From Diplonema papillatum (Eukaryota; Euglenozoa; Diplonemea; Diplonemida; Diplonemidae): DNA of 64,000 bases. Of this stretch, positions 4,995 through 61,300 are shown one piece after another. The notes under the pieces were generated by a model. It ran no database searches. It was not told the origin of the DNA and saw only the letters and a list, made by a program, of their open reading frames with translations. Where the stretch lies: the NCBI GenBank assembly GCA_030068145.1, contig JAPJBO010000338.1:157229-221228 (forward strand). The letters run 5' to 3'. A program made the translations under genes and the position numbers. Positions within the stretch are counted from its first letter, which is position 1, and each line of letters begins with the position of its first letter.

Positions 4995-5450
4995 ACACAC
5001 GAGAATCGACCCGCAAACCCGCGAACCCGCATATCCGTTCCCGCAAACCCGCATACCCGAACCTGCAAACCCGCAACCCCAAACCCGCATACCCAAACCC
5101 GCATACCCCCGCATACCCGTACCCGCAAACCCGAACCCGCATACCCGTTCCCGCAAACCCGAAAAAACCCAAACCCGCAAACCCGCAAAAACCCGCAAAC
5201 CCGCGTACCCAAACCCGCAAACCCGCATACCCGAACCCGCATACCCGTTCCCGCAAACCCGCATACCCGTTCCCGCAAACCCGCATACCCGTTCCCGCAT
5301 ACCCGAACCTGCAAACCCGCAAACCCAAACCCGCATACCCAAACCCGCATACCCGCGTACCTAAACCCGCAACCCGCATACCCGAACCCGCATACCCGCA
5401 AACCCGGAATCGCAAACCCGCAAACCCCGCATACCCGCAAGCCCGCAGAC
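4995..5450. repeat. ACCCGCAAACCCGCAT tandem array
   Basis: A dense array of 7- to 8-base units alternating ACCCGCAA, ACCCGCAT and ACCCGAAC or ACCCGTTC. It reads as a long low-complexity open frame on both strands (Pro/Asn/Thr-rich on plus, Gly/Cys/Arg-rich on minus), which I reject as coding. The ACCCGAAC theme recurs in the arrays at the right end of the window. Confidence 0.95.
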
Positions 5451-5885
5451 CTGCAGATTGTGGCTGGAACTGTTTTTGGAAATACACACAGCAAATCAAA
5501 GAAAGGGGGGAAAGGTGGAAAATGCAGATCAAACGGGAGTAAAACGTGTACACGCTTATCCGACTCTTGACTTACTATGCCGTGTTCTGAAAGCTGTCGA
5601 GGGGCCCCTCCATAGGTTCTCGCATGATTCGTTCGCCTTTGTAACACTATCCGTTTGTAGTACGCTTCGCAATTGTGTTCTTGCAATATCTAGCCGAATG
5701 GCGGGTGGCGGATTTCCGCGCTCGTGCGCAAGACACAATTATGCTGCTTTTGCAGTGCAAGCCGAACCCGGTTCGCGACTTCGGTTGCGGTAAAGTGTTA
5801 CAAAGTCTTCGGCTTTCAGATCCGGATACGCCTTATGCAACATGATAGTTAGAGGTCACTTGAAGGATACCGTGTGCAGCGTTCG
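5451..5885. other. unique spacer between the two G-rich blocks
   Basis: Non-repetitive sequence between the ACCCGCA array and the second G-rich block. I recognise no gene; only frames up to about 110 codons without known motifs are present. Confidence 0.5.
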
Positions 5886-41550: not shown

Positions 41551-41852
41551 TACCTACCCCCCCCCCGTGTTTAAGATCGCGTTTTTCCGTGTTTAAGATC
41601 GCCCCCCAAAAAAACCGATCTTATACACGGGGGGGGACGGGGGGGGACAAAAAACACCCCAAAAATTTTTTTTTCCGCTGCGCGGGGCCCTGAACCCCCC
41701 CCCACAGTAAAAACGCCCAAAAAAAAAAAACTTTCCCGCTGCGCGGGACCCCCACCCCACTCCCCCCCCGTGTATAAGATCGCCCTCATCAAAAAAACTG
41801 ATCTTATACACGGGGGGGAGGGCGCGATCTTAAACACGGGGGGTGGTAGGTA
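41551..41852. mobile_element. foldback/MITE-like element, copy 1 (302 bp)
   Basis: Ends are near-perfect inverted repeats: TACCTACC followed by a C-run and GTGTTTAAGATCGC at 41551-41580, mirrored at 41824-41852 (GCGATCTTAAACACGG, then GGTAGGTA). Inside are two further hairpins built from the same core: CCGTGTTTAAGATCG facing CGATCTTATACACGG (about 41589-41632), and CCGTGTATAAGATCG facing GATCTTATACACGG (about 41768-41814). Two copies of CCGCTGCGCGGG flank an A-rich centre. It has no coding capacity. A related element is at 49126-49356. Confidence 0.85.
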
Positions 41853-42020
41853 TGTATTAAAAAACGGCCGGGACTCCCCAACAAGTAGCTAAAAGCTTAA
41901 AAGTAAGTGTAGATAATATGTGGCTACCACTTAGAAATTCCTTCGGAAAGAGGGGTATAGTCTGGTCGCCAGATCCGTTTTGTCAGAAGATTCATCGTGG
42001 TACCGTTCTCCACAGTGCGT

Positions 42021-42240
42021 CCAACTACGAGCTTTTTAATAACAGCAGCATTAGTATACGCTATTGGTGCTGGAATTACCGCGGGTGCTGGCACCAGACT
42101 TGTCCACCAATTGTGTGCATTGACAGGTTTAGATATCATCCATTGCTTCCAACGTACTAAGTACGTGTCGAGGCTATTTCTCTTCGCTGCCTCAGCAGTG
42201 TTGCTATTGGGCAATTTGCGTACCTGCTGTCATCCTTAGG
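42021..42240 (-). rRNA. 18S rRNA fragment (530-loop region)
   Basis: The minus strand reads the conserved small-subunit core: an AATTTGCCCAATAGCAA-like segment, then AATTGGTGGACAAGTCTGGT, GCCAGCACCCGCGGTAATTC, CAGCACCAATAGCGTATACT and TTAAAAAGCTCGTAGTTGG. This includes the universal GTGCCAGC.GCCGCGGTAA site with a change in the usually invariant CAGCCGCGG (CACCCGCGG). Spacing between blocks is close to normal. Similarity vanishes beyond about 42240 and below about 42020. The substitution in the decoding-site loop and the truncation point to a pseudogene or a horizontally acquired fragment. Confidence 0.8.
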
Positions 42241-42748
42241 TAGGTATGAAGTGAGGGGATGACTGGCTGGGGTGCACCTTGGGAGATATCTGTCATCGGC
42301 AAGACAGACTTTCGACGCGGATGGCCATTCTTGGTCCAGAGATTTCCGCCCCTGCGCGTGTGTATACATGCAGTTGGCATGCTTGTCCCTTGCACTTCGT
42401 ATGCGGCAGCGTCCAAACTATTCCGCGCCTGCGGTGCCATAGTTTTCGTAGGAATTATGCATCCCTTCTTGCCAGGTGTCATCTCCCACGAACACTTCAG
42501 AAAAGTGTAGAAGAAATGGTTCCAGACCAGTTTACCGGCTGTTGGCTCGCGGGGTCAGAGTTGGTACCCCCCGAAAGAAAAATATATTAAAAAACCCAAC
42601 TCGCCACTCGCCAACGCGACTTGCAAGATTGATATATGATGCGAACAGGTGTTTTCTGCGATCAGCTGTTCCTGGAGCAATTGCCAGGTGCCTGAACGGC
42701 TAATAACTGTGTACGTCCGTCCGTACGAGTGTCACAAAAATCTTGCGC
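42241..42748. other. sequence adjoining the 18S fragment
   Basis: No rRNA similarity that I can see continues past 42240, and no gene is recognised. Confidence 0.4.
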
Positions 42749-42800
42749 TGAGCCCAAATCCAGGGTCACAGTTCTACTTGGGCAGTTCAGTTTCCTGAGG
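42749..42800. repeat. dispersed repeat family B, fragment
   Basis: A truncated copy: GAGCCCAAATCC, then TTCTACTTGGGCAGTTCAGT and TTCCTGAGG. Confidence 0.75.
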
Positions 42801-43255
42801 CTTAAATAAACCCGCTGTTTCCACGGGAACCATAGCCCATTATTCTTCGTCAACTTCTCGCCGAGCGCTTAGTTTTGCGGCTAAAGCAGTAAAAGAGAGC
42901 GGATTTTGATGTGAACCCGGCTCACAACAAGCCCTGACGACCCGTCGTGGATTGCGGTGCATGTGAATCTGTGTCGTTGTTTGCTGCAACACACAACTTG
43001 TAAATAGCGAAGGCGGTGGCGGGGCTGCTCCAGATACGTGCAGCTTCGGTTGGTTCCGCAAGAAAGAATCGCGCTTGCTAAGGGAGGTGACGCGCAACTC
43101 ACCTTGCCCGCTTGGACCCCTCGGAACTACTGGGCTTGGAGAATCAATCCTACCGCAGTCCTCGTTTGGGTTTACATTCCGGGGGGGGCCACGCGGGTTG
43201 CTGCCCTCTTTGCGGTTTCTCACCTCCTGTCTTCTCTTCCGGATGGGGAAAGTGG

Positions 43256-43432
43256 GGATTGCAAGAACGTGCTTGGAATGGGTATGTGCTCAACACCGCA
43301 CTGGTCCCGTCTGCGCCGTGTTTCGGTCCTTTAAGCCGCGGACACATAAGGCGGACCATCATCAGCGGGGAACCTGAGTGTCTGCAGACAGGACTGCGGT
43401 GTGAGTCTGGTTTGTCAGGCGGCTGTTCGTAG
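43256..43432. repeat. dispersed repeat family D, copy 2
   Basis: Same-orientation partner of 16290-16480. It includes GGGATTGCAAGAACGTGCTT, GCGGACCATCATCAGCGGGG and GTGTGAGTCTGGTTTGTCAG. Confidence 0.85.
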
Positions 43433-44370
43433 CTCGTCACAGCCAGGACCACCCGTGCTGCTAGAGCACAGGCGAATCCGTCATGGGGAGAAGGCCCCTA
43501 CAACTGTGTCTGAGCAATCAGTTAAAAAACTCAGGGCATTCGCCCTGATGGTGACTGCGACTCGCTAGGCAGCACTGACTTGTCTTCTTTTTACGGTGGC
43601 AATCTGCGAAGTAAACTCCGCAGAGCACAGTGGACATGGGGTTGCCGTGTGCAGCACCAATGGTTGAAGTACCAAAGGAAAAATAGTGCTCCGGGATGGG
43701 GAAAGTTGGGGGGGGGGGATGGTTCAGGGAGAGTCAGAAAGGAATATTTTATGAAACGGGGGAAGCCAAGAAAAAGCAGAGTGCATAGAGTGAGAGAGAG
43801 GGAAAACTGGAATGGGCTGGATATTTGAAAGGCAGGATGACAAAATAAAGGAAAAACCCCAAGGTTGTTGCATATAACCGTGAAACGAATTGTGGGAAAA
43901 AAGCGGGGTTGGGAATAAGCATCAAAACAGAGGGAAAGGAAAGGGAAAAGGAAAGGGGGGGGGGGGGGCACCTCCGTCTGGTATCTTCGTGCGGCCGCAA
44001 GGCTCCACTAGAAATTCAGAGTCTCTTTATGAGAAACGAAAGCAAAGAACAGGAATATGAGAGAGAACCAAAAACTCTTTTATTTCGAGGGGGGGAGGAA
44101 AGGGAAGGGGGAAGGGTGAAAACTTAGGTAAAACGTGCAATGCAGACGTATTAGGGGAGGGATCGTACTTCTTTTTCGGGAAGGGAGGAGATGGGAAGGG
44201 ATATCAGTGAACAAAGGAATGAAGAGGGGGCAGTCTGCTCGGCATTGCCGGCGCCAGGAGCCAAACCCGTGGACCGTACGCAACACCTACAGCTGCACAA
44301 CACCACCAGGGTGGCAGTGGTTGAAAGCAAGTTGTGCGAGAGGAAGGTGCAGGTGAGTGACCGCCACTGT
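43433..44370. other. gene-free interval, purine-rich on the plus strand
   Basis: No gene recognised. The stretch 43680-44210 is strongly purine-biased on the plus strand (GGGAAAGG-type runs, G-tracts at 43710 and 43958). Confidence 0.45.
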
Positions 44371-44830
44371 GCAGCATTACCTTGGCCTTGCAAGCCGCGG
44401 TGTGACCTTTTTTTTTGCACGAAGCGGCGAGGCTGTTTGTGACGCACAACCGTCAACGCTGTGCAGCATTACCTTTGCCTTGCAAGCCGCGGTGTGACCT
44501 TTTTTTTTGCACGAAGCGGCGAGGCTGTTTGTGACGCACAACCGTCAACGCTGTGCAGCATTACCTTTGCCTTGCAAGCCGCGGTGTGACCTTTTTTTTT
44601 TGCACGAAGCGGCGAGGCTGTTTGTGACGCACAACCGTCAACGCTGTGCAGCATTACCTTTGCCTTGCAAGCCGCGGTGTGACCTTTTTTTTTGCACGAA
44701 GCGGCGAGGCTGTTTGTGACGCACAACCGTCAACGCTGTGCAGCATTACCTTTGCCTTGCAAGCCGCGGTGTGACCTTTTTCTTGCCCGAGGCGGCGAGG
44801 CTGTTTGTGACGCCAACGCTGTGCAGCACC
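44371..44830. repeat. 92-93-bp tandem satellite, five copies
   Basis: The landmark GCAGCATTACC occurs at 44371, 44463, 44555, 44648 and 44740, spacing 92-93. Each unit has CTTTGCCTTGCAAGCCGCGG, TGTGACC, a T8-9 run, GCACGAAGCGGCGAGG, and TGTGACGCACAACCGTCAAC. Copies are nearly identical, differing mostly in T-run length. The array probably arose recently. Confidence 0.95.
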
Positions 44831-46750
44831 AGCGCTGCACGGCATTGCTACACTCACGGTGCACTTGCTCGAGCCCCGCTGCTGTGCCCCTACAGTCACA
44901 GGAAACACCACCATACAGTGTGCGTGTTCAGCGCAAACCTTAGTGACCGCACACTCGACAACCGGCGACTGCTGAAGCACATGAAGCATGCATCCGCGCG
45001 GAGGCCTGGTATATTCCTTGTGCTTGAAGGCGCCAAAACTAACCTGCTGTTGGTCCACGGAACTTCGGACTTCCTCCTGATTTCGTTCACAAAAAACAAT
45101 GAATGAAAGAAAGAGAGAGAGAGTGTGTGTGTGTGTATGTGTCTGTGCAAAAAAAAAACTGGGTGGTGTCTTTTTTTTCTTCTTTTTGGAGGGAGAGAAA
45201 GGTCCTTTTTTTTCTTGCTTTTCTCTTTTTTTTTTTTTTTTGGACGTGTTCGTCCCGCGGCATGCACCGAGGATCGACTACCAGAAAAAAAAAAAGAAGA
45301 ATCATGGTGCGCAAGTAGACTTGTGAGAAGAGCGCCAATTTTGGAAGGGGGAAGTCTCGGCGAACTTCGTCAATATTTCGTCAGTATCCTTTGTGCTCTG
45401 AGTGTTCTCAAGAGTGGTGGTTACACGAGATAAAGGAATCGGTGTACCTTGCTGTTAGCCATTGGTAGTTTCGGCCATTATCCACATTCCTTACTTACGG
45501 TAGGCCTCCTCAGTGTGGTGCCGTAGTAAGTGACTAGCCTTCTTGGTACCGTATGACCGTCTCTTTAAAACGTTTCGTGTAGAATGTCGGAACATCATCA
45601 CCTGAGTATGTTTCGAGCTTTAAGAAGCCGGTATTTTGAGTCTGGCCGGCATTTTTAGAGTGCAATTTTTGTGTCCTTGCTTTGTTTTCGCTTCTCGAAG
45701 TCTTCTTGCTGTCCATGAGAAGTATGAAAGAAAAAATAAGAACAGCTTGCAACGAATATGAAAGGAAGAATAAGGAGCTTTTTTTTAAAAAAAAATTCAT
45801 TTCTTTACGGAGAGGGTGGGGACGCAGTAGTAGCGGGTAGCGGCAGCAAAGAAGGAAAGGAGTGGACGATTGTTTCTGAGGGAGAAAGAGGGACCTAAAA
45901 TAGGGTGGAGAGGGAGGAAACACACCGCGTATTCGACGTGCACAATCCATGACAACTTCAGTGTACTTGCCAAGTACAGTTTCTGACACAGTCCGCGTAC
46001 TTGTTGCAATGTACTTGGAGAGCACGACAACTGCACGGTGCGTGGGGAGTACTTTCGAGTTCTCTGGCCACAAAGGCCACCGGTCACTTGTCTTTGACAC
46101 TGTACATGTACGTGAGTGTGCCCCTTTTTTAGATCAATGTGCATCGTGGTCTGCCTTGTGTTGCTGCTGGCCGAACGAACGAGGTGAGGCCCGCTGTTTC
46201 TGTACTGTAGTGACCGGTAGGCCGCACGGATACCACGACCGTCCTCAGCGCGGCTAAGGTAGGAATTCGCGCGCGCTGGGAGATCGTCTTTCCCACTGGA
46301 AATACAGAAGCCACGTTTTGTGAGTGGGCACCCCCTAGCGCGACATTGGCCACTCGTCTCGACAAAAGGCTTCGGGACCAAGAGGCGCAGAGTTTGTCAG
46401 CCCAACACTCCCACGCCATCACCCACGGGCTCAACTAGCCCAAACACCGATTTATTTGGGCTGTTGCCCAATTTCTTCCGATCACCGCCCAATTGAAAAG
46501 GTTGCAGACCGACCATGAGGTGAAACACGGTGAGTGGCAAGGCAAGGCAAGGCAACCACTTGTACCTTTGACGCTGTAATTCGGCAGTCTTTTTGGCACT
46601 TACGAAAAGGATTTGCGGGCGGCTTGGACACGCTGTCGGGGAAGGAAAGTGCCCTGTACAGCCAGATCGTGACTCAGTAAACCGGTAAACCATTTGATTT
46701 CGCAGTGGGTGCTTTCGACTGGGTATTATTTTTCCTTTCTGTGTGTCATT
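44831..46750. other. gene-free interval with microsatellites
   Basis: No gene recognised. GA/GT microsatellites lie at about 45110-45150, and long T- and A-runs at 45168-45295 and 45780-45800. Confidence 0.45.
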
Positions 46751-49120
46751 TTCAGAGGGTGAAAGTTCGTTTGAGAATCCGGGGGTTTCTTTTGTAGAAT
46801 TGTTGCTTCCCCTTGTTTCTGCAACGAACAAGAACGTGAGTAACTAGAAGTAGCTATACCAAAACACTTGTGACAAAAAAGAGTATCAGTAGAAAACGAG
46901 AGAGAAAGAGAACCAAGGATGTGCGCGGGAGGAGGTGAGTCCTAGTTTTTTAAAATAAAACAAGAAGGAGTGCATGAGTGAGTGAGGACGAGAGGAAGAT
47001 GTGTGGGTGTGTGTGTGTATGTGTGTGGGTGGGTGTGTGTGCGCGCGTGTGTGTGTGTGTTTACTTCAAGAGCCATACTTGGACCCCTACCTAAAAAGAA
47101 ATGCGGGAAAGAACGCGGTGAATTCTGCCATGTGATACACCAGCAGGGGATCGCGGTGGTTGTTTGTGAGCGAACATGGTACGTTTGCAGCTCAGTGTTA
47201 CGAAGACAAACCCTTTCCTAGGGCCATGACTAGTTTATGTAACGTGAAAGTTCGATTGAAGCTCCGGGGTATGAAGTGCCCGGTGATCCTCGGCCGTTGG
47301 ATTGCAGCAAAGTCACTAAAGGTGGAGAAAGTGTCGGTCAATACCGTTGTTGCTGATTGTTTGTTCACATACGGTATCCCTGTTCAGTATGGTGAAGTAG
47401 TGACAGTGCACCTACTTGGTACCGTCTGACCGACAGTTCCTCCCGTGCTTTTCGAGGCTCTTTTCTTTTCAGCTCAGGGCCAAGTATCAAGGAATAGTAT
47501 GAAGATGTGCGTTTCTCTTTTGTGGATTGGCGGGAATTGGGGGGGAGGTGAGTCGGGACTTAAAAACAAAAAAGAAAAGGTTTTCCAAACGCGGAAGAGA
47601 GCTACCTGCGGGCGGGAGGGTTGAACCGGACGGTAGGACAAAGAATAGGAACTAACAGAAGTCAAACGTTAGATTCGCTGGAGAGAGGGGAGGAAAAGTA
47701 TAGAGAGACAAAGACCAGGTTTCGGGACGGGGGACAGGGTTGTAGAAAAAAGAGCCTGTTTCACGTCAAATTCACTTATCGGGTATCTTTGGCATGAAAC
47801 GGGAGGGAGGGAGGGCGGTTTTTCTTTCAAGGATTGAAGTATTCTGATGGAAATTGGATAAACGGGGGGAGGGGTGCAAGAACATGCTTGGAACGGGAGG
47901 GGGGGGTTGCGTGGCTCATCACGCGGAAGGTGGGAGAGTGCACTATTGCTAACTTCCCATGGTCACTCTGTGGTGAGCGACGTCTTTGGCAGCCCTGTCC
48001 ATCGTACAGTGGTCTAGCTCATGTTCACCACCAGAACACAGTCGAGGGTGCGCGGTTTTGTTTGTTTGCTGCTGTTCCCGGCGTTGAAAGGCAAACGGCG
48101 CGTGAAACAAAAAGGCACCCCCAGGTGCTAGTTCTCTTGGTTAATTTATCTCTGTTAGAAAGAGAGGCGGCTGTTGTGCTGGCTACGGGGGTTCTTGTGT
48201 TGGATTAGGTGTAACTACTGTATATAATTTTAGGGTTGGAAAGAACTTCCATTTTCTTCTATTCCTTACTGGGGAGGGATGTCAGAGAACCTTAGGGAGT
48301 TACAGTTACAGAACTTTGTCTTCTTGTAGTTCGCACTTGACCAGCAGGTCCACCCCCCGCACGCCAAGTCCGCCCTTCGATATGTGCTCGTCCTTTCCTT
48401 CACTTCGTTTACGAAGCTTGATCTGATTGCATCACTGGATAAATTCGCATGGTTTCCTGACAACAGTCGAACCGTGCTTTGGAGAGTCACGACCCGAGGC
48501 TTCACACGATACACCACATGTGACGTAGCAATGAATCATCACTAAGCATGATAACATAACATGCGTATGGACATCACGTGGAGATACAGCTAAAAGAGAC
48601 ATGAATCGCATGTGCTGTCAGCATAGCATGCAAACCCTATTGTTGCAATTCCCTTTAAGAAGTGGGTTGTGTAGACTCGCGTGCGTGTTCGATGTTCTTC
48701 TTCTCGGAAAAAGATGAACCCCGGAACGTAGCTTCACTGTTTCTACCTGCGTGACGCCACGAAACAGTGTCTATACTACTGTACCTAGAGTTGACTGGGC
48801 GACCTCTGCACTCCCGGGATCGGTATTGGTAAAGTCATGAGTGCGTTTACTACGACGGGGCGCATGCACAAATGAAGTTGTGCTGGCGGGCGGGTAACAG
48901 CAACGAACGGGGGCAAGCGGGCGACAAGGGAGAAACAGATGGTAAAACAGACAACGGGGAAGTGAGAAGGAGTGGAGATCAGTGAAGGAACGAAGGCCTT
49001 ATTCTGGGTTCTTTTTGTTTTTATTTTTCCCCCTTCATGCATTCGCTTTGCTTTGTTTTCTGCTTTTCTTTTTTCTCTTTTTCTTGTTCCCCGCTTCTCC
49101 ACCCATGTTCACCCTTTTTT
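46751..49120. other. gene-free interval with GT microsatellite and family H fragments
   Basis: No gene recognised. Family H fragments are at 46758-46785 (GGGTGAAAGTTCGTTTGAG, then AATCCGGGGG) and 47243-47270 (CGTGAAAGTTCGATTGAAG, then CTCCGGGG). A GT microsatellite is at about 46998-47062. A family D piece (CAAGAACATGCTTGGAACGG) is near 47877. Confidence 0.45.
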
Positions 49121-49125
49121 TGGGG

Positions 49126-49356
49126 TACCTAGCCCCCCCCGTGCATAAGATGGATAAAAAACTCGGGTTTTGGCGGTATCCATCTTAATCAAGGGGGGTA
49201 TCCATCTTAAACACGGGGGCACTGTAGACTACAGTGTAGTCACTTTGCACAGGGGTACCTCACCCCCGTGTTTAAGATGGATTGGCATTCTCGCCCGTTA
49301 TCCATCTTAATCAAGGGGGTTTGGCTATCCATCTTATGCACGGGGGGGGCTAGGTA
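49126..49356. mobile_element. foldback/MITE-like element, copy 2 (231 bp)
   Basis: Perfect 29-base terminal inverted repeats at 49126-49154 and 49328-49356: TACCTAG, a C-run, then GTGCATAAGATGGA. Internal copies of the core GTGTTTAAGATGGAT and its complement ATCCATCTTAAACACGG form two further hairpins, with ATCCATCTTAATCAAGGGGG loops and a GTAGACTACAGTGTAGTCA mini-palindrome near the centre. Element 41551-41852 shares the TACCTA ends, the C-run and the CGTG..TAAGAT core but has CG where this one has GG. No coding capacity. Confidence 0.9.
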
Positions 49357-52343: not shown

Positions 52344-52640
52344 CTAAAAATGCATACTCTGCGGATCGGCAGCGTTACCGTAGTGAGCCAGAATGTAGAC
52401 TGCCGCGGAGTTGATGACCTGCATGTCGTCGCCGGTAAGGAGGACCCGCGTCTCCGGAGATTCGTCGGTGAAGACCTTGATCGAGACCCCTGGGAACTGC
52501 TCTTCGAGCTTCGCTTTCTGCGCTCCCTTCTTGCCGATGAGCAGGCCGGCACGCGCCGCGGGGATGGTGAACTGCTTCCACTGCTTGTCGCTCGGCACGT
52601 TGGCGGGCGCACCCTGGTGCTGCAACTGCCCGGCGGGGCC

Positions 52641-52676
<36 letters not shown>

Positions 52677-52794
52677 GTGGTGCTGCTGCTGGTGCTGCTG
52701 CAGCTGCTGCTGCTGCTGCTGCTGCTGGTGGAGGATCCGCAGGAGGGCCTGCTGCTGCTGCTGCTGCTGCTGTTGCTGCTGGTGGTGGTGGTGC

Positions 52795-52845
<51 letters not shown>

Positions 52846-54185
52846 AGCTGGGCTTCGCGCTCCGACTTCTGCAGGAGCATCATTTGGAGCATCTGCTGCT
52901 GCTGCAGCGTGGCGCGGTTCTGGGCCAGCGCGTCGGGCATCGGCGATGCGACTTCCGGCTGCTGCGTGCCGGCTGCGCTGCCTGCGCTGCTCGCCACATC
53001 CGGAGCCGCAGCCGCCGGGGCCGGCTTCGGCCTGCGCTCGTCGGGATCCCTCTTGTACTGGTCCACGACCTTGATGACTTCGTCGATGACCTCCTCGGAT
53101 TCGGCCGAAATCGCGATGGTTTCCGTGTCCAGCCGCGTGTCGATGTGCAGGGAGGGGAACTGCTGCTGGAGCCTCTTGATGTTCGACCCGGCCTTCCCGA
53201 TGAGGAGGGGCCTGAAGTTCATGGGGAACGGGTGGGTCCGAACGCACGCGGTCGACGCCTGCTTGTCGTTGTACGTGATGCGGCTTCTGGTCTTCCCTGT
53301 GCCCGGACTGTTCAGCTTCTCCTTGTGCTGCGACGCTTCGTCGGCGGAGGAGAAGGTGAGCACCCAGCAGTTGGTGCCTTCCTTCGAGATGGCCGCCTCG
53401 TGCGGGGCCACAAGCGCGAGGATGTCCTCGGGCGTGGCCTCGAGGTTGTTCGCGTCGAGGACGAAGCTGTTCGGGTGATTTACCGTCCCCTTGTGCCTGA
53501 TCAGCTCGCTGCCCTTTTCTCCTTCCACGACGAGGGCAGAGCTCTTCTCCAGTGCCTCCAGCAGCGTCGTCCTGTCGGTCGTCAGCTCCGTCACCTTTCG
53601 GAACTGCGCAATCACGCTCAAAGGAACCTGTGTGTGGTTGAAGCTGTTGTTGAACGGCTGCAGCAGCCGGAGACAGCAGGTGCAGGGGGCAGGCGCAGCT
53701 GCTGTGCAGATGTTTGCTCTCCTTTTTTTTTGCGTTTTTCTCTCGCGGGGACCCGCCCCCGGCAGTCCCGACTGATCAAGCAACCTTGTACTACAGCTGC
53801 ATCAGACGCAGGTTGATCCGAGTTCGCTAGAGGGGAGGTGGCGCCGATCACTTGTCACGGAACTGACCGGGGGAAAAAGGAATGCGTTGATTCTGGCCCT
53901 TGAACGTTGATCCTGGTCCAAGAAAGGTTGGACCTGGGCGTTCCAGGCTATACCCGTTCCGCCACTGCGCCTACGCAACATTTGCAGTTCGAACGACAAT
54001 TTCCAAATACGGGAATGACCTGAAATCGCTGGCAAAATACAAACGCATTGACACACCTGCGTTCTTTCGTTCATCTGCTGCTGCATGTATCCGTCGCGCG
54101 GGAGATTCTGCGGGCTGAAGTAGTACTCGACCTGCTTCAGGATGCGCTCGTAGAGTTCCATTTCATGCTGCGGCTCCGGCGTCAT
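52344..54185 (-). CDS. La-motif, RRM-like and KH-domain RNA-binding protein with polyQ (two exons)
   Basis: Exon 1 (54057-54185, 43 codons) and exon 2 (52344-53627) join at ACGCAG|GTGTGT to CACACAG|GTTCCT. The join reconstitutes a La motif at residues 8-85: YYFSPQNLPRDGYM, then VPLSVIAQFRKVTELTTD. An RRM-like stretch follows (about 97-150, CWVLTFSSADEASQH). KH domain 1 is at about 180-240 with its GxxG loop (LLIGKAGSNI). A Gln/His-rich tract of about 80 residues (CAG and CAC runs) lies at roughly 304-385. The second KH domain is C-terminal (AGLLIGKKGAQKAKL). The annotated product is 470 residues. La motifs bind RNA 3' ends or poly(A); KH domains bind short single-stranded RNA. A cytoplasmic post-transcriptional role is likely. 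La plus KH in one chain is not an arrangement I know from standard LARP families. The stop used here may be bypassed by splicing to 51505-52053. Confidence 0.88.
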
Positions 54186-56428: not shown

Positions 56429-56716
56429 AAGCCGTGGGATCAAAGATCCTAAAAAGGTTAGCATCGCTGTATCGGACCAGCAATTGGATCACTCTCGTCG
56501 CTTGCATGTAAAGGGCCTGACAGAGAGACAGAGCCGGCAGAGTCGGAGACGGGGGTGGCTGCATCGTCGGCGCGGCGAGGGTAGTGCGTGGGCTCCGAGC
56601 AGGGACGGGAGGTCGACAGGCACGTGTACAGCAGCACCGCGACGGAGCCCCCGCCGAGCTGCGCCATGAAGGCGTAGTAGCACCACAGGGTGGCGCCAGC
56701 ACCTTTTGCACAGCGA
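56429..56716 (-). pseudogene. truncated copy of the SLC19-type carrier 3' end
   Basis: This closely repeats 56889-57180: both start CAAGCCGTGGGATCAAA and continue through CAGCAATTGGATCACTCTCG and GTCGGAGACGGGGGTGGCTG. It encodes only the C-terminal part of the carrier. It differs by an insertion of about 15 bases (GGCGCGGCGAGGG) that shifts the frame, by CATGAAGG for CATGCAGG, and by loss of the sequence between the CACCACAGGGTGGCG and AGCACCTTTTGCAC blocks. Similarity ends abruptly at about 56716. No functional transporter could be made. Confidence 0.85.
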
Positions 56717-56921
56717 CAGTTCCGGAGTTGGGGCTTTCACCGATAAACGAAGTAACGGACAATCAGCATCATCCATGGTGATCCAACTGATCACATATTT
56801 TGTTCTTCGCGCACGGGGTAGCAACCTGTATCGAGAGACAGTCTTAGCTTACTGTTTAGGCAGTGCATTGCCTCGCATGCACGCACGGCAAGCCGTGGGA
56901 TCAAAAATCTTTAAAAAAAGA

Positions 56922-58343
56922 TTAGCATCGCTGTATCGGACCAGCAATTGGATCACTCTCGTCGCTTGCATGTAAAGGGCCTGACAGAGAGACAGAGCCG
57001 GCAGAGTCGGAGACGGGGGTGGCTGCATCGTCGTGCGTGGGCTCCGAGCAGGGACGGGAGGCCGACAGGCACGTGTACAGCAGCACCGCGACGGAGCCCG
57101 CGCCGAGCTGCGCCATGCAGGCGTAGTAGTACCACCGGGTGGGCGCCCTGTAGTGGGACAGCACCTTTTGCACGGCGACGCCGAGGCCGAGCCCGAGGAA
57201 CGAGTTGAACGCGAAGACGACCGCGTAGCGGTGCGACTCCGCGCGCCCGAGCACGTGGGAGATGGTGATCTCGGCGGCGGACAGCTGGTACGAAAACAGC
57301 CCGCTCGCCGCCGCGTTCAGCAGGACGCTCTCGTAGAAGGTCGACGCCCGCGTCGACAAGTACAGCGGGACCACCAGCGCCAGCGACACCACAACAATGA
57401 CCTCCGCCGACCAACCCCTCACCCACCCCGCCGCCAGCGCAGGCAGCACCCCGCCCACAGCCGCCGCCGCCTCGTAGATCGCCTCCGCGTACCCGAAGGC
57501 GCCGTCCGAGTCCAAGTCGTAAAACTGGTTCTGCGAGTAGTTCCCAACGATAAACGCCGCAGAGTACCCGAAAACCCACCAGAAGCTCCAGAGGCGGATG
57601 TTCTTCGAGGCGGCGTACAGGTCGCGCAGCTCCTTGGTGGCGGCTGCAAACCCGTCCTTCCGGATGATGCTGTACAGGGACGACGGCATGTCGACGACGG
57701 GCTTCGGCGAAAACAGCAGGAAACAGCCCAACCCGACGCTGGAAAAGGCCCACGATTGGTAGAACAGCGCCTTGAGCGTGACGTGCCCCGCGATGGCTTC
57801 GCTCAGGACGGAGCCCAAAACGTTGCCGACGCTGTACGAAGCGTTGATCAGCGCCACGGCCACGGGTGCCACCCGGGGGGGACACGCCACGAACGCGTAG
57901 GAATAGTATATCGTGTTGGCCCCGGTGGCGCACGCGTACGTCACCTGCATGAACGCCATGGCGCTCAAGCCTTCCGCGTACAGGAGCAACAGCCGGGTCG
58001 CTTGTCGGCAGAGGAGGCCGAACAAAATCACAGCTCTGTACCCCAGGATTTCGGTCGCGAAGCCAAGGGGAAAAAGGACGAGAAACGCGCCGTACGTGTC
58101 GTAGGGCCACACACAGCACTCGACTTGCGATTCGGTCAGGTTTTTGGACTCCAGGAGGTACTTGGTAAGGTAAGGCTCCGAGGGTTGGCAGTTGATGAAA
58201 AAGGGGACCGAGCAGAGGGCGAGCACTGTGCGCCACTCCGCCCGGAGTGCGTCCCACCATGGCAGTTCAGCCGGGCCGCAGTCGGGCGGCGCGTCCTCGT
58301 CAGGCACGTGGAGGGGCGCGAACTCCGATTCATCGTCACTCAT
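56922..58343 (-). CDS. SLC19-type folate/thiamine carrier (major facilitator fold)
   Basis: A 473-residue intronless multi-pass membrane protein. The N-terminal 35 residues are acidic and cytosolic-like (MSDDESEFAPLHVPDEDAPP). The first membrane segment carries CSVPFFINCQPSEPYLTKYL, matching the SLC19 pattern of a first helix followed by a P-S/G-E-P/S-Y/F-xxxYL substrate-site motif. Mid-protein, IRLWSFWWVFGYSAAF aligns with the LRLWSLWWVF signature of reduced folate carriers, followed by GNYSQNQFYDLD and an EAIYEAAAAVGG helix. About eleven to twelve hydrophobic helices are visible. The family moves reduced folates or thiamine across the plasma membrane; the substrate here is unknown. ATG at 58343 is chosen because the frame above it lacks another ATG. 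A partial duplicate of its 3' end lies downstream. Confidence 0.88.
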   Translation of the reverse strand: MSDDESEFAPLHVPDEDAPPDCGPAELPWWDALRAEWRTVLALCSVPFFINCQPSEPYLTKYLLESKNLTESQVECCVWPYDTYGAFLVLFPLGFATEILGYRAVILFGLLCRQATRLLLLYAEGLSAMAFMQVTYACATGANTIYYSYAFVACPPRVAPVAVALINASYSVGNVLGSVLSEAIAGHVTLKALFYQSWAFSSVGLGCFLLFSPKPVVDMPSSLYSIIRKDGFAAATKELRDLYAASKNIRLWSFWWVFGYSAAFIVGNYSQNQFYDLDSDGAFGYAEAIYEAAAAVGGVLPALAAGWVRGWSAEVIVVVSLALVVPLYLSTRASTFYESVLLNAAASGLFSYQLSAAEITISHVLGRAESHRYAVVFAFNSFLGLGLGVAVQKVLSHYRAPTRWYYYACMAQLGAGSVAVLLYTCLSASRPCSEPTHDDAATPVSDSAGSVSLSGPLHASDESDPIAGPIQRC

Positions 58344-61300
58344 GGTAGCCAGGCTCCTGGCCACAACACACCAGCAACCCCCCTTGCCCTCAAACGATCA
58401 TCCGGGGAGCTCGACGTGCGAACTTATCGAAGGGCACCCCCGCCGTTGCCAGCTGCTTTCCAACCCACCAAACCCAACCCTCCACCCATGGCTCTTCGTG
58501 TTGAGTTGGTTTGGGAGGATTCGAGAACGTACATGGATGAAAAGTGCGCAACACCGTGTCTCGTCAGCCCGGGCCCCGGCCCTACCACGGAGACTCGGCA
58601 GACCGTCAGTAGCGTGGACGACGCCGACACACCGTAGACCTCCCAGTGAACGACTAACGGGAGGCGCCGTTTACCCCTGTTGCCTAACAAATACTCAGGC
58701 TGAGCCGGATACCAACCTCGATGCCATGCGGGCTAAGGCGTAGACCTGCGTCCGAAAATCGAGTTCCTTTTTATTTTTACAACCGCGAGCGCACTACCTG
58801 ATACCCTGGCCAAGCACCTCCTCCGAAGAACAGTCCATGTCGTGTTGCTCGCTATCGGCCACCGGGCGTTTTTAGCCTTAGCAGAGGGATGCCGAGTAGC
58901 TCAGCATTCCCGAACTGAGCGACTCGTGCATAGCAAGGAGTTAACCAACATGGCTCGTCGAGAAAATACGGGACTCTCACCCTCTGTGATTACCCCATTT
59001 CAAGAGAGACTTGCCTTGGCGTCAGTTGTGTCCCAGCAGCTTGTACCACGCGGCATGCTAGCGACGGGAGGTGGCATGGAGAATCGAAGCTCTGGGACAA
59101 AGGAAAGGTGCTCGCTGAGACGCATCATGCCCACCGCCCCTGCGATCTTCGTGCAGACGCTAGTGTTGTGCTCGCTGCCGCGCGCCGTTTTCTATCCAAC
59201 CCAAATCACCTCATAACCGTGTTCAAAACATGAGCGCCGTGAAAGTTGTTAACTCGGGCTCGCATGCTGTGGTCCGACCTAACTCGAAGAATCTTCGGAA
59301 GATGAGCAAAAAAAGAGCGGCAACTCGAGGATTAATTCGAAACAGACAATTGAGCGTGGTCGTGAAGAGCATCGAGCCCTGCTCAGGAGAAAAAAAGCGA
59401 GCCGGCTGTTCTTCTTTCGGTCTAACGAGGCCCATTCGCTGAGACGCGCATCCAGGGCGGCCGCTCCTTGCGGCTTTTGTGTAGGGGTGTGAGCGTGTCA
59501 CCATCCGGGTCAGAACTCCTCCCATCGTGATGAGAGGATGAACGCCGAAAATGGTGTTGGCACCGGTTGGACGGAACTCGTGAGCGCGAGAGCCCGGACT
59601 AAGTACGCGAAGCCAGGCGAAAGATTAGTTGGGCCGCAGCTTTTGAGGGTTCGTGGAGGGAAAAGAAGGAACTTCTTTTTAGCTTTATTTGTGGATTAGA
59701 AGGTCGGTATTTTAAAGTCTCCGGTTGACCGTAGAGGCTTGAGTATGGCGGGGGGTTGAGAAAAGTGAGAGGGTGCAGCTCGTTTCGGGTGTTGTGTCAC
59801 TCCGTTGTGAAACCTTGTGAAGTCCCCTAACGCGTTTAGGGGGTGCTTGGGATTGGGTAGGGTGTGGTCGTTCTGCTACGGCGGGAAAAGCCAGGAAGTT
59901 TCGACGCTAATCTTCGACTTTTTTAGTAAAACCTTTGCGTTTCCGATTGTAGGGCAACAACCCGCAAGATTGTAAGGCCAAAGAGAAGTCAATCCTTTCA
60001 CATTGGGGCTTCCGAGTCCTGCAGTCGTTGAGCACAAACTGAAAAAGAAATCTGGTTCCCACTTCCTGCAGTGTTTGCATACCTCAGAAAACACAACGAC
60101 AACAGGCAAGTGAAACACACGTGGGGCTTGCCAAGACAAGAAAATAACATGTTGCCCTGCTAGGGAGGCATCGGTGCATTCTCCGAGACTTTATGGCGGG
60201 CGCTTGTATTGCACATTAGAGACTGGGTCCAGACGGAATTCGGGACTAGCCGGCCAACTGACCACACACAGCGAGTCAGGTCAAAAGAGAGAGGAGAGAG
60301 AGACTAATTATCAGTGCAGGGACCACCTCTTTCTAAGTCCCCCTGCAGAGGAAGCAGGACCATCAAAGCAAAGACAAGCATAGAACTACGACCAGTACGA
60401 TTGTAGCTCGAGCACCAGGCGGTCGTTTTTTGCGTACCGAGCGTGAGGGCAGCAAGCTGGATTGAACAGAGTACTAGACGAGAGATAGTGAAGCAAGCGC
60501 GCCATTACTCGAGACTTACATAGTCCCGAAGTATAAGCCGACCTGCACTGTTACACGTTTGGCTGTGCAGGGACCATCACTACGTCTTTCCTCGCACAGC
60601 AGGGTGCTAGTCATTTCGTTGGAGACGCGCAGCTGCCGCATTTTTTGGTCCGCTGGGACATATCAAACCAATTCGATCCAACTGCCGAGGGGCCTTTGCT
60701 CCGCAAGAAGCATGCTTGAGAGGCACCGTGCACTTGCATAGAAACCTGGGTCACCAAAGCAAAGGCACAGAGGATGCAGGCAAGGGTCTACGACCAGTAC
60801 GGTTCCAGCTCGAGCACGAGGTTGTCGATTTTAGCGAACTGAGTGTGTTATAGGTGAGAGGGTACTGAGGCAATCAAGCTGAATTGGACACAGCACCAAG
60901 TTTAAGGTGGTGGAATGGGTTCAATTGGTTCCTCACAGACGAGATGGTACCTAAGGAAACGTTGAACTATGCATAGTTATCACTTGGCTGTGCCAGGAGC
61001 CTTAACGAGCTAGTAAGTCCGAAATCAACGCCCGCAGGCCTACGCGTAGCCTATTGAGTAAACCAGCGAGGGTCACACCTGGAACGGCCACGAAACGCGA
61101 TAGAGGAAAGGCCGCAGATCAAAGCGGTTGTCGTCGGGCGAGTAGTTTTCAGCTGCACGTGTCGTGAATTGTTCGAGAGGAGAGGTGTATTGAATGGACT
61201 AGGTAATTTGGGAAGAAATTGTTGTGCACGGGGGTAGGTAACGATGAAATGTAAACCTCGAGAGAGAGAGAAAGAGGGAACACTAGCAGCGTGTTGGGGA

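What the first reader, a model, noticed from the sequence alone, without database searches (positions are those of the whole stretch)
41551..49356. New-looking family of nested foldback elements with TACCTA...TAGGTA ends
Two short non-coding elements (41551-41852 and 49126-49356) share TACCTA termini, a C-run and a CGTG..TAAGAT core. Each contains two further internal hairpins made from the same core, so a whole copy can fold into a multi-armed structure. The 49126 copy has perfect 29-base terminal inverted repeats, implying recent activity or strong selection. The internal core differs consistently between copies (ATCG versus ATGG) while pairing is kept on both arms. That is compensatory change, as expected if the folded form matters. 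I know no described MITE with this nested layout.
Basis: partly seen in the sequence, partly recalled or inferred. Interest (0 to 1): 0.72.

Follow-up and report, generated by a model that had tools for sequence, protein, structure and literature searches.

The report
Jumping-DNA fragments of pogo-like transposons
The two folded-back sequences are short, non-coding relatives of a jumping gene of the pogo kind that lands at TA sites, and its long copy carries an unusual second gene, a probable ubiquitin-removing protease.

Summary
The elements are real, at the stated coordinates, and belong to two of five related families (A-E) in a 271-Mb protist genome that looks like Diplonema papillatum. 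They are best read as MITEs of pogo-like (Tc1/mariner superfamily) transposons. Insertions duplicate TA, as paralogous empty sites show. Families A-D share one target signature: A/T-rich blocks 6-11 bp outside the TA. Ends carry repeated copies of a family-specific motif at fixed spacing, mostly in the order >>< or ><<. A 5,607-bp B-family element with the same ends encodes a DDE_1 transposase and, upstream, a USP-type (C19) protease gene broken by one stop. A USP-transposase pair recurs at three other loci, one beside an E-family end. The window's B copy is an internal-deletion derivative of the long element. Compensatory change is not supported: within families nearly all changes are one-sided, and the core differs between families at all its copies, which fits transposase binding sites. 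Known kind (pogo, MITE), new variant: multi-motif ends plus a separate USP gene, for which my literature searches found no Tc1/mariner counterpart. No long element of family A was found.

The parts
41551..41852 (+). Family B MITE, 302 bp, target TA at each end included
   Evidence: its two halves align to the two ends of the 5.6-kb element
49126..49356 (+). Family A MITE, 231 bp, target TA at each end included, 31-bp perfect TIRs
41551..41552 (.). TA target duplication, left, B copy
   Evidence: by analogy with the empty sites; the empty allele of this very site was not seen
41851..41852 (.). TA target duplication, right, B copy
   Evidence: as above
49126..49127 (.). TA target duplication, left, A copy
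   Evidence: as above
49355..49356 (.). TA target duplication, right, A copy
   Evidence: as above
41573..41579 (+). B motif core, left end, terminal
41595..41601 (+). B motif core, left end, middle
41616..41622 (-). B motif core, left end, innermost
41776..41782 (+). B motif core, right end, innermost
41799..41805 (-). B motif core, right end, middle (1 mismatch)
41825..41831 (-). B motif core, right end, terminal
49147..49155 (+). A motif core, left end, terminal
49178..49186 (-). A motif core, left end, middle
49200..49208 (-). A motif core, left end, innermost
49274..49282 (+). A motif core, right end, innermost
49300..49308 (-). A motif core, right end, middle
49327..49335 (-). A motif core, right end, terminal

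Best explanation
Both elements are non-autonomous MITEs of a diversified lineage of pogo-like, Tc1/mariner-superfamily cut-and-paste transposons. A DDE_1 transposase with a Tc5-type DNA-binding region, encoded by rare long copies, recognises several (usually three) copies of a family-specific motif at each end (C-run, G/TTG, three bases, 8-9-base core), cuts outside CCTA, and joins the element to a TA flanked on both sides by A/T-rich blocks, so that TA is duplicated. MITEs arise from the long element by internal deletion between short repeats and are moved in trans. The nested hairpins follow from some motif copies being inverted. Long copies also carry a USP-type protease gene upstream of the transposase; it may shield the transposase or repair factors from ubiquitin-dependent turnover. 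Shown by sequence: boundaries, TA duplication, target signature, motif geometry, transposase and USP between B termini, recurrence of the gene pair, deletion origin of the window's B copy. Inferred: that this transposase binds the motifs and moves the MITEs, that family A is moved by such a transposase, and what the USP does.
For: TA duplication: filled sites GAGG-TA-element-TA-AGGGG against paralogous empty sites GAGGTAAGGGG, occupied by copies of both A and B; 1,761 exact matches to the empty-site pattern, 0 in control, about four in five of the listed places with exactly TA between the flanks. The long copy's own joined flanks, AAGACG-TA-CCGGAAA, occur without an insert in L003, L058 and beside the element itself. 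Target signature: 177 distinct flanks, A/T fraction .79 .86 .96 .96 .82 .71 at 6-11 bp outside the TA.45-.58 elsewhere, alike in A, B and C and broadly in D. Motif geometry: 137 of 152 ends show >><, ><< or >><<. Long element C22:203163-208769: B ends, no internal ends, 631-aa ORF, DDE_1 PF03184 E=2.4e-8, 34.2 bits over cut-off 22; C-terminal USP piece matches UCH_1, 23.3 bits over cut-off 22.2. Of 50 scored transposase loci, 6 besides C22 itself lie within 1 kb of one of the 100 listed termini, 0.037 pairs expected; 5 of these 6 lie on the inner side of a B terminus. In four fetched B ends (L087, L097, L098, L099) the terminus continues into sequence of the long element's transposase region. 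The gene pair recurs at C807 (E terminal motif, USP, transposase 43%), C279 (37%) and C757 (35%). Deletion origin: MITE 1-151 and 95-302 align to long-element 1-179 and 5392-5607, overlapping around CCGCTGCGCGGGGCC.
Against: No long element with family A termini was seen, so the link of A to this transposase rests on shared ends, motif geometry and target signature. The USP frame in C22 has one in-frame stop; many of the other transposase matches are broken or partial. HTH_Tnp_Tc5 is just under its cut-off. No solved structure matches the transposase (best E=0.22, unrelated), and the N-terminal USP piece has no Pfam match. DDE_3, another Tc1/mariner model, gave one match, below cut-off. Of 28 listed DDE_1 matches on contigs C1-C170, none lies within 3 kb of a listed terminus, so most DDE_1 genes in this genome belong to other elements or have termini my exact pattern misses. 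TACCTA was not read at C807, C279 or C757. Aligned copies are the best-scoring ones and lean towards young copies.
Confidence: 0.85

Rival explanations
1. The folded, multi-armed form itself is the functional unit (cruciform recognition or single-strand transposition), and selection keeps the pairing.
For: Strong predicted folds; paired sites vary less than unpaired ones, 0.0093 against 0.0152 in A and 0.0067 against 0.0208 in B.
Against: Changes in paired positions are almost all one-sided: A 58 one-sided and 3 two-sided, B 41 and 0; some one-sided ones keep a G-U pair (19 and 10). A TA duplication and a DDE_1 transposase point to double-strand cut and paste. Lower variation at motif sites is equally expected from protein binding.
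Confidence: 0.07
2. Another superfamily moves them, for example the abundant MULEs.
For: MULE transposases are common in the genome: 245 candidates, 150 scored, the listed matches over cut-off.
Against: The TA duplication does not fit MULEs (8-11 bp, recalled). Of 27 listed MULE matches on contigs C1-C170, one (C69) lies within 8 kb of a listed terminus, and there the terminus belongs to an ordinary B MITE that ends before it.
Confidence: 0.03
3. The USP gene is a captured host gene, not a standing gene of the transposon lineage.
For: A 244-bp stretch 97% identical to the E-element USP stands at C26 with different flanks; C-family copies carry a piece of 28S rRNA, so these elements can hold host sequence.
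Against: Related USP pieces occur in B and E elements and, decayed, in C, and a USP lies upstream of the transposase at four loci, three of whose transposases are only 35-43% identical to that of C22.
Confidence: 0.2
4. They are a source, or relics, of the noncanonical, end-pairing introns of diplonemids.
For: The 2025 intron paper suggests MITE-like transposons with G- and C-rich inverted ends as a source (PMC12621601; passages and section 9 seen).
Against: Not tested with RNA. Among those of the first 60 loci with both exact ends, joined flanks gave open frames across the junction (longest 473 aa, L055; the 8 longest were printed), but none was shown to be coding on both sides, and L022 lies upstream of a ribosomal-protein-like frame; L055 is unresolved.
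Confidence: 0.05

Closest known systems
pogo / Tigger / Tc5-type transposons of the Tc1/mariner superfamily
   Same: DDE_1 catalytic domain, near-cut-off Tc5-type HTH match, TA target duplication, MITE derivatives (general features recalled)
   Different: Several motif copies per end in >>< or ><< order, CCTA-plus-C-run tips, and a separate upstream USP gene
Foldback elements (FB, Galileo, Tetris)
   Same: Internal inverted repeats, whole copy can fold back
   Different: Ends here are short motif arrays of fixed spacing and the long copy has a pogo-like transposase (comparison recalled; foldback papers seen only as a listing)
DNA transposons with proteases of the ubiquitin or SUMO pathway (Ginger1 with OTU or Ulp1; Mutator with Ulp1; a Trichomonas protein with transposase_11 and C19 peptidase)
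   Same: Transposon lineage with a cysteine protease acting on ubiquitin-like tags
   Different: Those named in PMC2836005 (passages seen) belong to other superfamilies; here a separate C19 gene stands beside a pogo-like transposase
Dispersed repeats and 28S rRNA pieces of Diplonema papillatum (PMC10161547)
   Same: Probably the same genome; about 3,600 scattered 28S pieces are reported there
   Different: Its main text has no word beginning with MITE or inverted and likens the pieces to TRIMs and SINEs (passages seen; supplements not seen); here two of three C-family copies carry such a piece inside a DNA transposon

Membership tests
Tc1/mariner superfamily, pogo group | TA target duplication | tested here: met
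Tc1/mariner superfamily, pogo group | DDE_1 catalytic domain between the termini | tested here: met
   B family, C22: 34.2 bits over cut-off 22; not shown for A
Tc1/mariner superfamily, pogo group | Three catalytic aspartates | tested here: inconclusive
   Candidate D290, D419 and D462 of the ORF by inspection (positions); motif recalled, no structure made
Tc1/mariner superfamily, pogo group | CENP-B/Tc5-type HTH | tested here: inconclusive
   PF03221 E=6.8e-4, 20.0 bits, cut-off 22.2
MITE | Short, non-coding, TIR-bounded, high copy, derived from a coding element | tested here: met
   (derivation shown for B only)
MULE | 8-11 bp target duplication (recalled) | tested here: not met
PIF/Harbinger and ISL2EU | TWA or AT target duplication (PMC4482050, passages) | tested here: not met
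   TA
PIF/Harbinger and ISL2EU | DDE_Tnp_4 (PF13359) transposase in the genome | not tested
   search did not complete
hAT | 5-8 bp target duplication (PMC4482050, passage) | tested here: not met
Noncanonical diplonemid intron | Precise removal from transcripts | not testable with these tools
   no RNA data

The most novel reading that the evidence does not exclude
A pogo-like transposon lineage in which a separate USP-type deubiquitinase gene is a standing partner of the transposase, and whose ends carry a modular code: a constant C-run tip, a swappable family core repeated at fixed spacing, and a flip of the middle copy that can mark one end from the other. Core and transposase would have co-evolved to split one lineage into at least five families that still share the same target rule.
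Probability: 0.5. Interest if true: 0.75.

Novelty: new variant of a known kind. Interest (0 to 1): 0.62.

Why it matters
It gives diplonemids, among the most species-rich marine protists, a defined DNA-transposon lineage with boundaries, a target rule and a candidate transposase. It offers a natural experiment on how a transposase and its binding sites diverge in step while the target rule stays fixed. It adds a Tc1/mariner-type case to the scattered hints that ubiquitin removal goes with DNA transposition, and it offers an origin for part of the scattered 28S rRNA pieces. It also supplies concrete candidates for the proposed MITE origin of end-pairing introns.

Tried and rejected
Giant-ORF lead: eight USP hits at 41% lay in open frames of 1,125-2,794 aa. 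The C739 copy (2,048 aa) ended beside a G-run and TAGGTA, which looked like our terminus; 19 other copies of that end show no TAGGTA and diverge after CCACCCCTG, so it is a separate, hAT-looking element, with a G- or C-run after the end in 15 of the 19 by my count. MULE as driver: rejected, see rivals. DDE_3: one sub-cut-off match. PF13359, PF02992 and PF01359 were asked for but did not complete, so they are untested. Reading L063 as two separate B MITEs (my first view) was wrong: it has no internal ends and is one 5.6-kb element. USP as a Pack-type capture: made less likely once the gene pair was seen with the transposase, kept as a rival; 28S remains a likely capture. A TAGGTA-like end at window 61227-61240 has no partner or nearby inverted repeat. 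Exact terminus hits in two bacterial contigs show no element structure and are taken as chance; none in viral contigs. A first, orientation-blind alignment gave misleading identities and was redone.
Full report
Setting. The window lies at C338:157229-221228 of a 271,365,524-base, 2,910-contig assembly. Size resembles the published Diplonema papillatum genome, 280 Mb (PMC10161547, passages seen). The species is inferred; no tool named it.

The elements. Element B is 41551-41852, element A 49126-49356. A has 31-base perfect terminal inverted repeats. Folding is far beyond shuffles. Each is one of many: 603 and 483 first-look candidates, 40 scored each, and 366 exact hits to the shared terminus with 0 in the control. 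Aligned copies average 98.9% identity to their consensus: 39 A copies (30 plus 9 of 10 later ones; one without a right end dropped) and 30 B copies of the 40 scored. This points to recent activity but is biased to young copies.

Boundaries and target. Copies L009, L010, L019 and L024 (A) and L040 and L047 (B) sit at the same TA of a dispersed repeat; L009, L010 and L019 have near-identical flanks and may be one insertion duplicated with its surroundings. Paralogous stretches in L014, L011, L049, L074, L039, L017 and L072 lack the insert and read GAGG-TA-AGGGG; L020, L050, L013 and L045 also lack it but differ by small changes. The empty pattern occurs 1,761 times in the genome, 0 in the control; about four in five of the listed places read exactly so. 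So the element is CCTA...TAGG and TA is duplicated. Of 60 loci, 45 with both exact ends and distinct left flanks show no clear longer direct duplication (one-base matches 16 against 11.0 expected, two-base 4 against 3.0, three-base 1 against 0.7) and an A/T block outside each end. Over 177 distinct flanks of 190 ends the A/T fraction at positions 6-11 is .79 .86 .96 .96 .82 .71 and .45-.58 elsewhere; A (76), B (68) and C (22) agree, D (10) broadly. Different families therefore seem to obey one target rule.

Five families. Fetching listed termini showed five cores behind the same tip: A CATAAGATGGA, B TTTAAGATCGC, C AACATGTCACC, D TTAGTGTCGCC, E TAATTGAGACA. Of 82 exact termini in L061-L135, 25 are A, 24 B, 22 C, 8 D, 1 E and 2 unassigned; the sites were partly chosen by me and only the first 100 of 366 were listed, so these are not genome fractions. 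E has 204 hits with up to one mismatch, 0 in control. A and B cores resemble each other, as do C and D, so the five are not five independent cases.

End architecture. Within 75 bp of the terminal core, 62 A ends read ><< (31) or >>< (25), with 6 others; 57 B ends >>< (30) or >><< (25), 2 others; 22 C ends >>< (11) or ><< (9), 2 others; 10 D ends >>< (4), ><< (1), 5 shorter; the one E end >><. Median distances from the terminal core are 25-27 and 53-56 bp for >><, 31-34 and 52-53 for ><<, and 22, 44 and 66 for >><<. In single elements, A and C have one >>< and one ><< end; the window's B copy has >>< at both; the right ends of the D and E examples are incomplete. The order is kept while the core changes. 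It looks like an array of binding sites, in A and C with a left-right difference.

The compensatory claim. Against the predicted pairs, A has 58 one-sided changed cells (39 broken, 19 G-U) and 3 two-sided; B has 41 (31 broken, 10 G-U) and 0. Paired sites do vary less than unpaired ones. The ATCG/ATGG difference separates families and holds at all or nearly all motif copies. So pairing is not shown to be what is kept.

The long element. L063 (C22:202963-209000) holds B termini at both ends and none within: a 5,607-bp element. Its 631-aa ORF matches DDE_1 (PF03184, E=2.4e-8, over cut-off) and HTH_Tnp_Tc5 (PF03221, just under cut-off); no solved structure matches it. Upstream lie two in-frame pieces, split by one stop, of a USP-type protease. 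The second matches UCH_1 over cut-off; the first has no Pfam match but is 47% identical over 60 residues to the USP of a giant ORF that does. The best solved relative of the second is USP14 (E=0.008, 47 residues). The joined flanks of the copy occur uninterrupted in L003, L058 and L063. The window's B MITE aligns to its two ends, at 78% (with a 33-base gap) and 84% identity.

The gene pair recurs. The transposase has 788 first-look candidates, 70 scored, 76 matches in 50 loci. Seven of the 50 lie within 3 kb of the 100 listed termini, 0.11 pairs expected. One is C22 itself; the other six lie within 1 kb (0.037 expected), and of these C17, C41, C42 and two on C79 lie on the inner side of a B terminus while C21 does not. 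At C807 an E terminal motif (56483), a USP match (56633-56893) and a transposase match (56907-57869, 43%) follow one another. C279 and C757 have USP and transposase matches on one strand 0.95 and 0.93 kb apart (37% and 35%). E copies C42 and C1085 are about 1.4 and 1.2 kb and hold the USP part; C1085 ends in TAGGTA, the C42 copy does not. C copies carry a decayed USP-like piece (Pfam only at E=0.09 and 0.17, under cut-off; 29 of 90 residues identical to the E piece).

28S rRNA. Two of three C copies (L062, L064) hold a match to LSU rRNA model positions 24-103; L061 does not reach the gathering score. The genome paper counts about 3,600 28S pieces; C elements may explain a share, which was not counted here.

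Mechanism. Most likely the DDE_1 transposase binds the motif arrays, pairs the ends, cuts and inserts at TA between A/T blocks; MITEs ride in trans. Binding, mobility and the role of the USP are inferred. Association of A with this transposase rests on shared architecture and target.

Novelty. Searches for diplonemid MITEs, foldback elements, transposon-borne ubiquitin proteases and pogo with ubiquitin hydrolases (listings) showed no title or abstract describing these families or a pogo-like element with a separate USP gene. The library lacks most subscription papers and no repeat database was at hand. The nearest precedent seen is a Trichomonas protein joining transposase_11 and a C19 peptidase, mentioned in PMC2836005 (passages).

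Noticed in passing
window 42064-42177 (-): Fragment of small-subunit rRNA (Rfam RF01960, 71.1 bits) just downstream of the B element.
   Followed up: no
L141/L142 (C739:4692-10836): 2,048-aa open frame with a USP domain (PF00443, E=1e-6) and a C-terminal part that looks hAT-like by eye (recalled motif; that part has no Pfam match); its end CAGGGGTGGAAACTGAATC, searched as AGGGGTGGAAACTGAATC, has 90 hits with up to 2 mismatches against 7 in control.
   Followed up: partly
genome-wide: Dispersed repeat carrying GGAAATATAGAGGTAAGGGGCAAATACAATA, 1,761 pattern hits, an insertion site used by A and B elements and, by one similar flank, probably C.
   Followed up: partly
genome-wide: Abundant MULE (245 candidates) and DDE_1 (175 candidates) genes, many with long open frames and equal scores.
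   Followed up: no
L163 (C26:375134-375377): 244-bp stretch 97% identical to the E-element USP with different flanks and no exact E motif listed on that contig.
   Followed up: partly
L064 (C84:21264-30046): 8.8-kb C-family element filled with sequences that look by eye like nested poly(A) retroelements.
   Followed up: no
window 52344-53783 (-): Long open frame with glutamine runs and regions that look by eye like KH domains.
   Followed up: no
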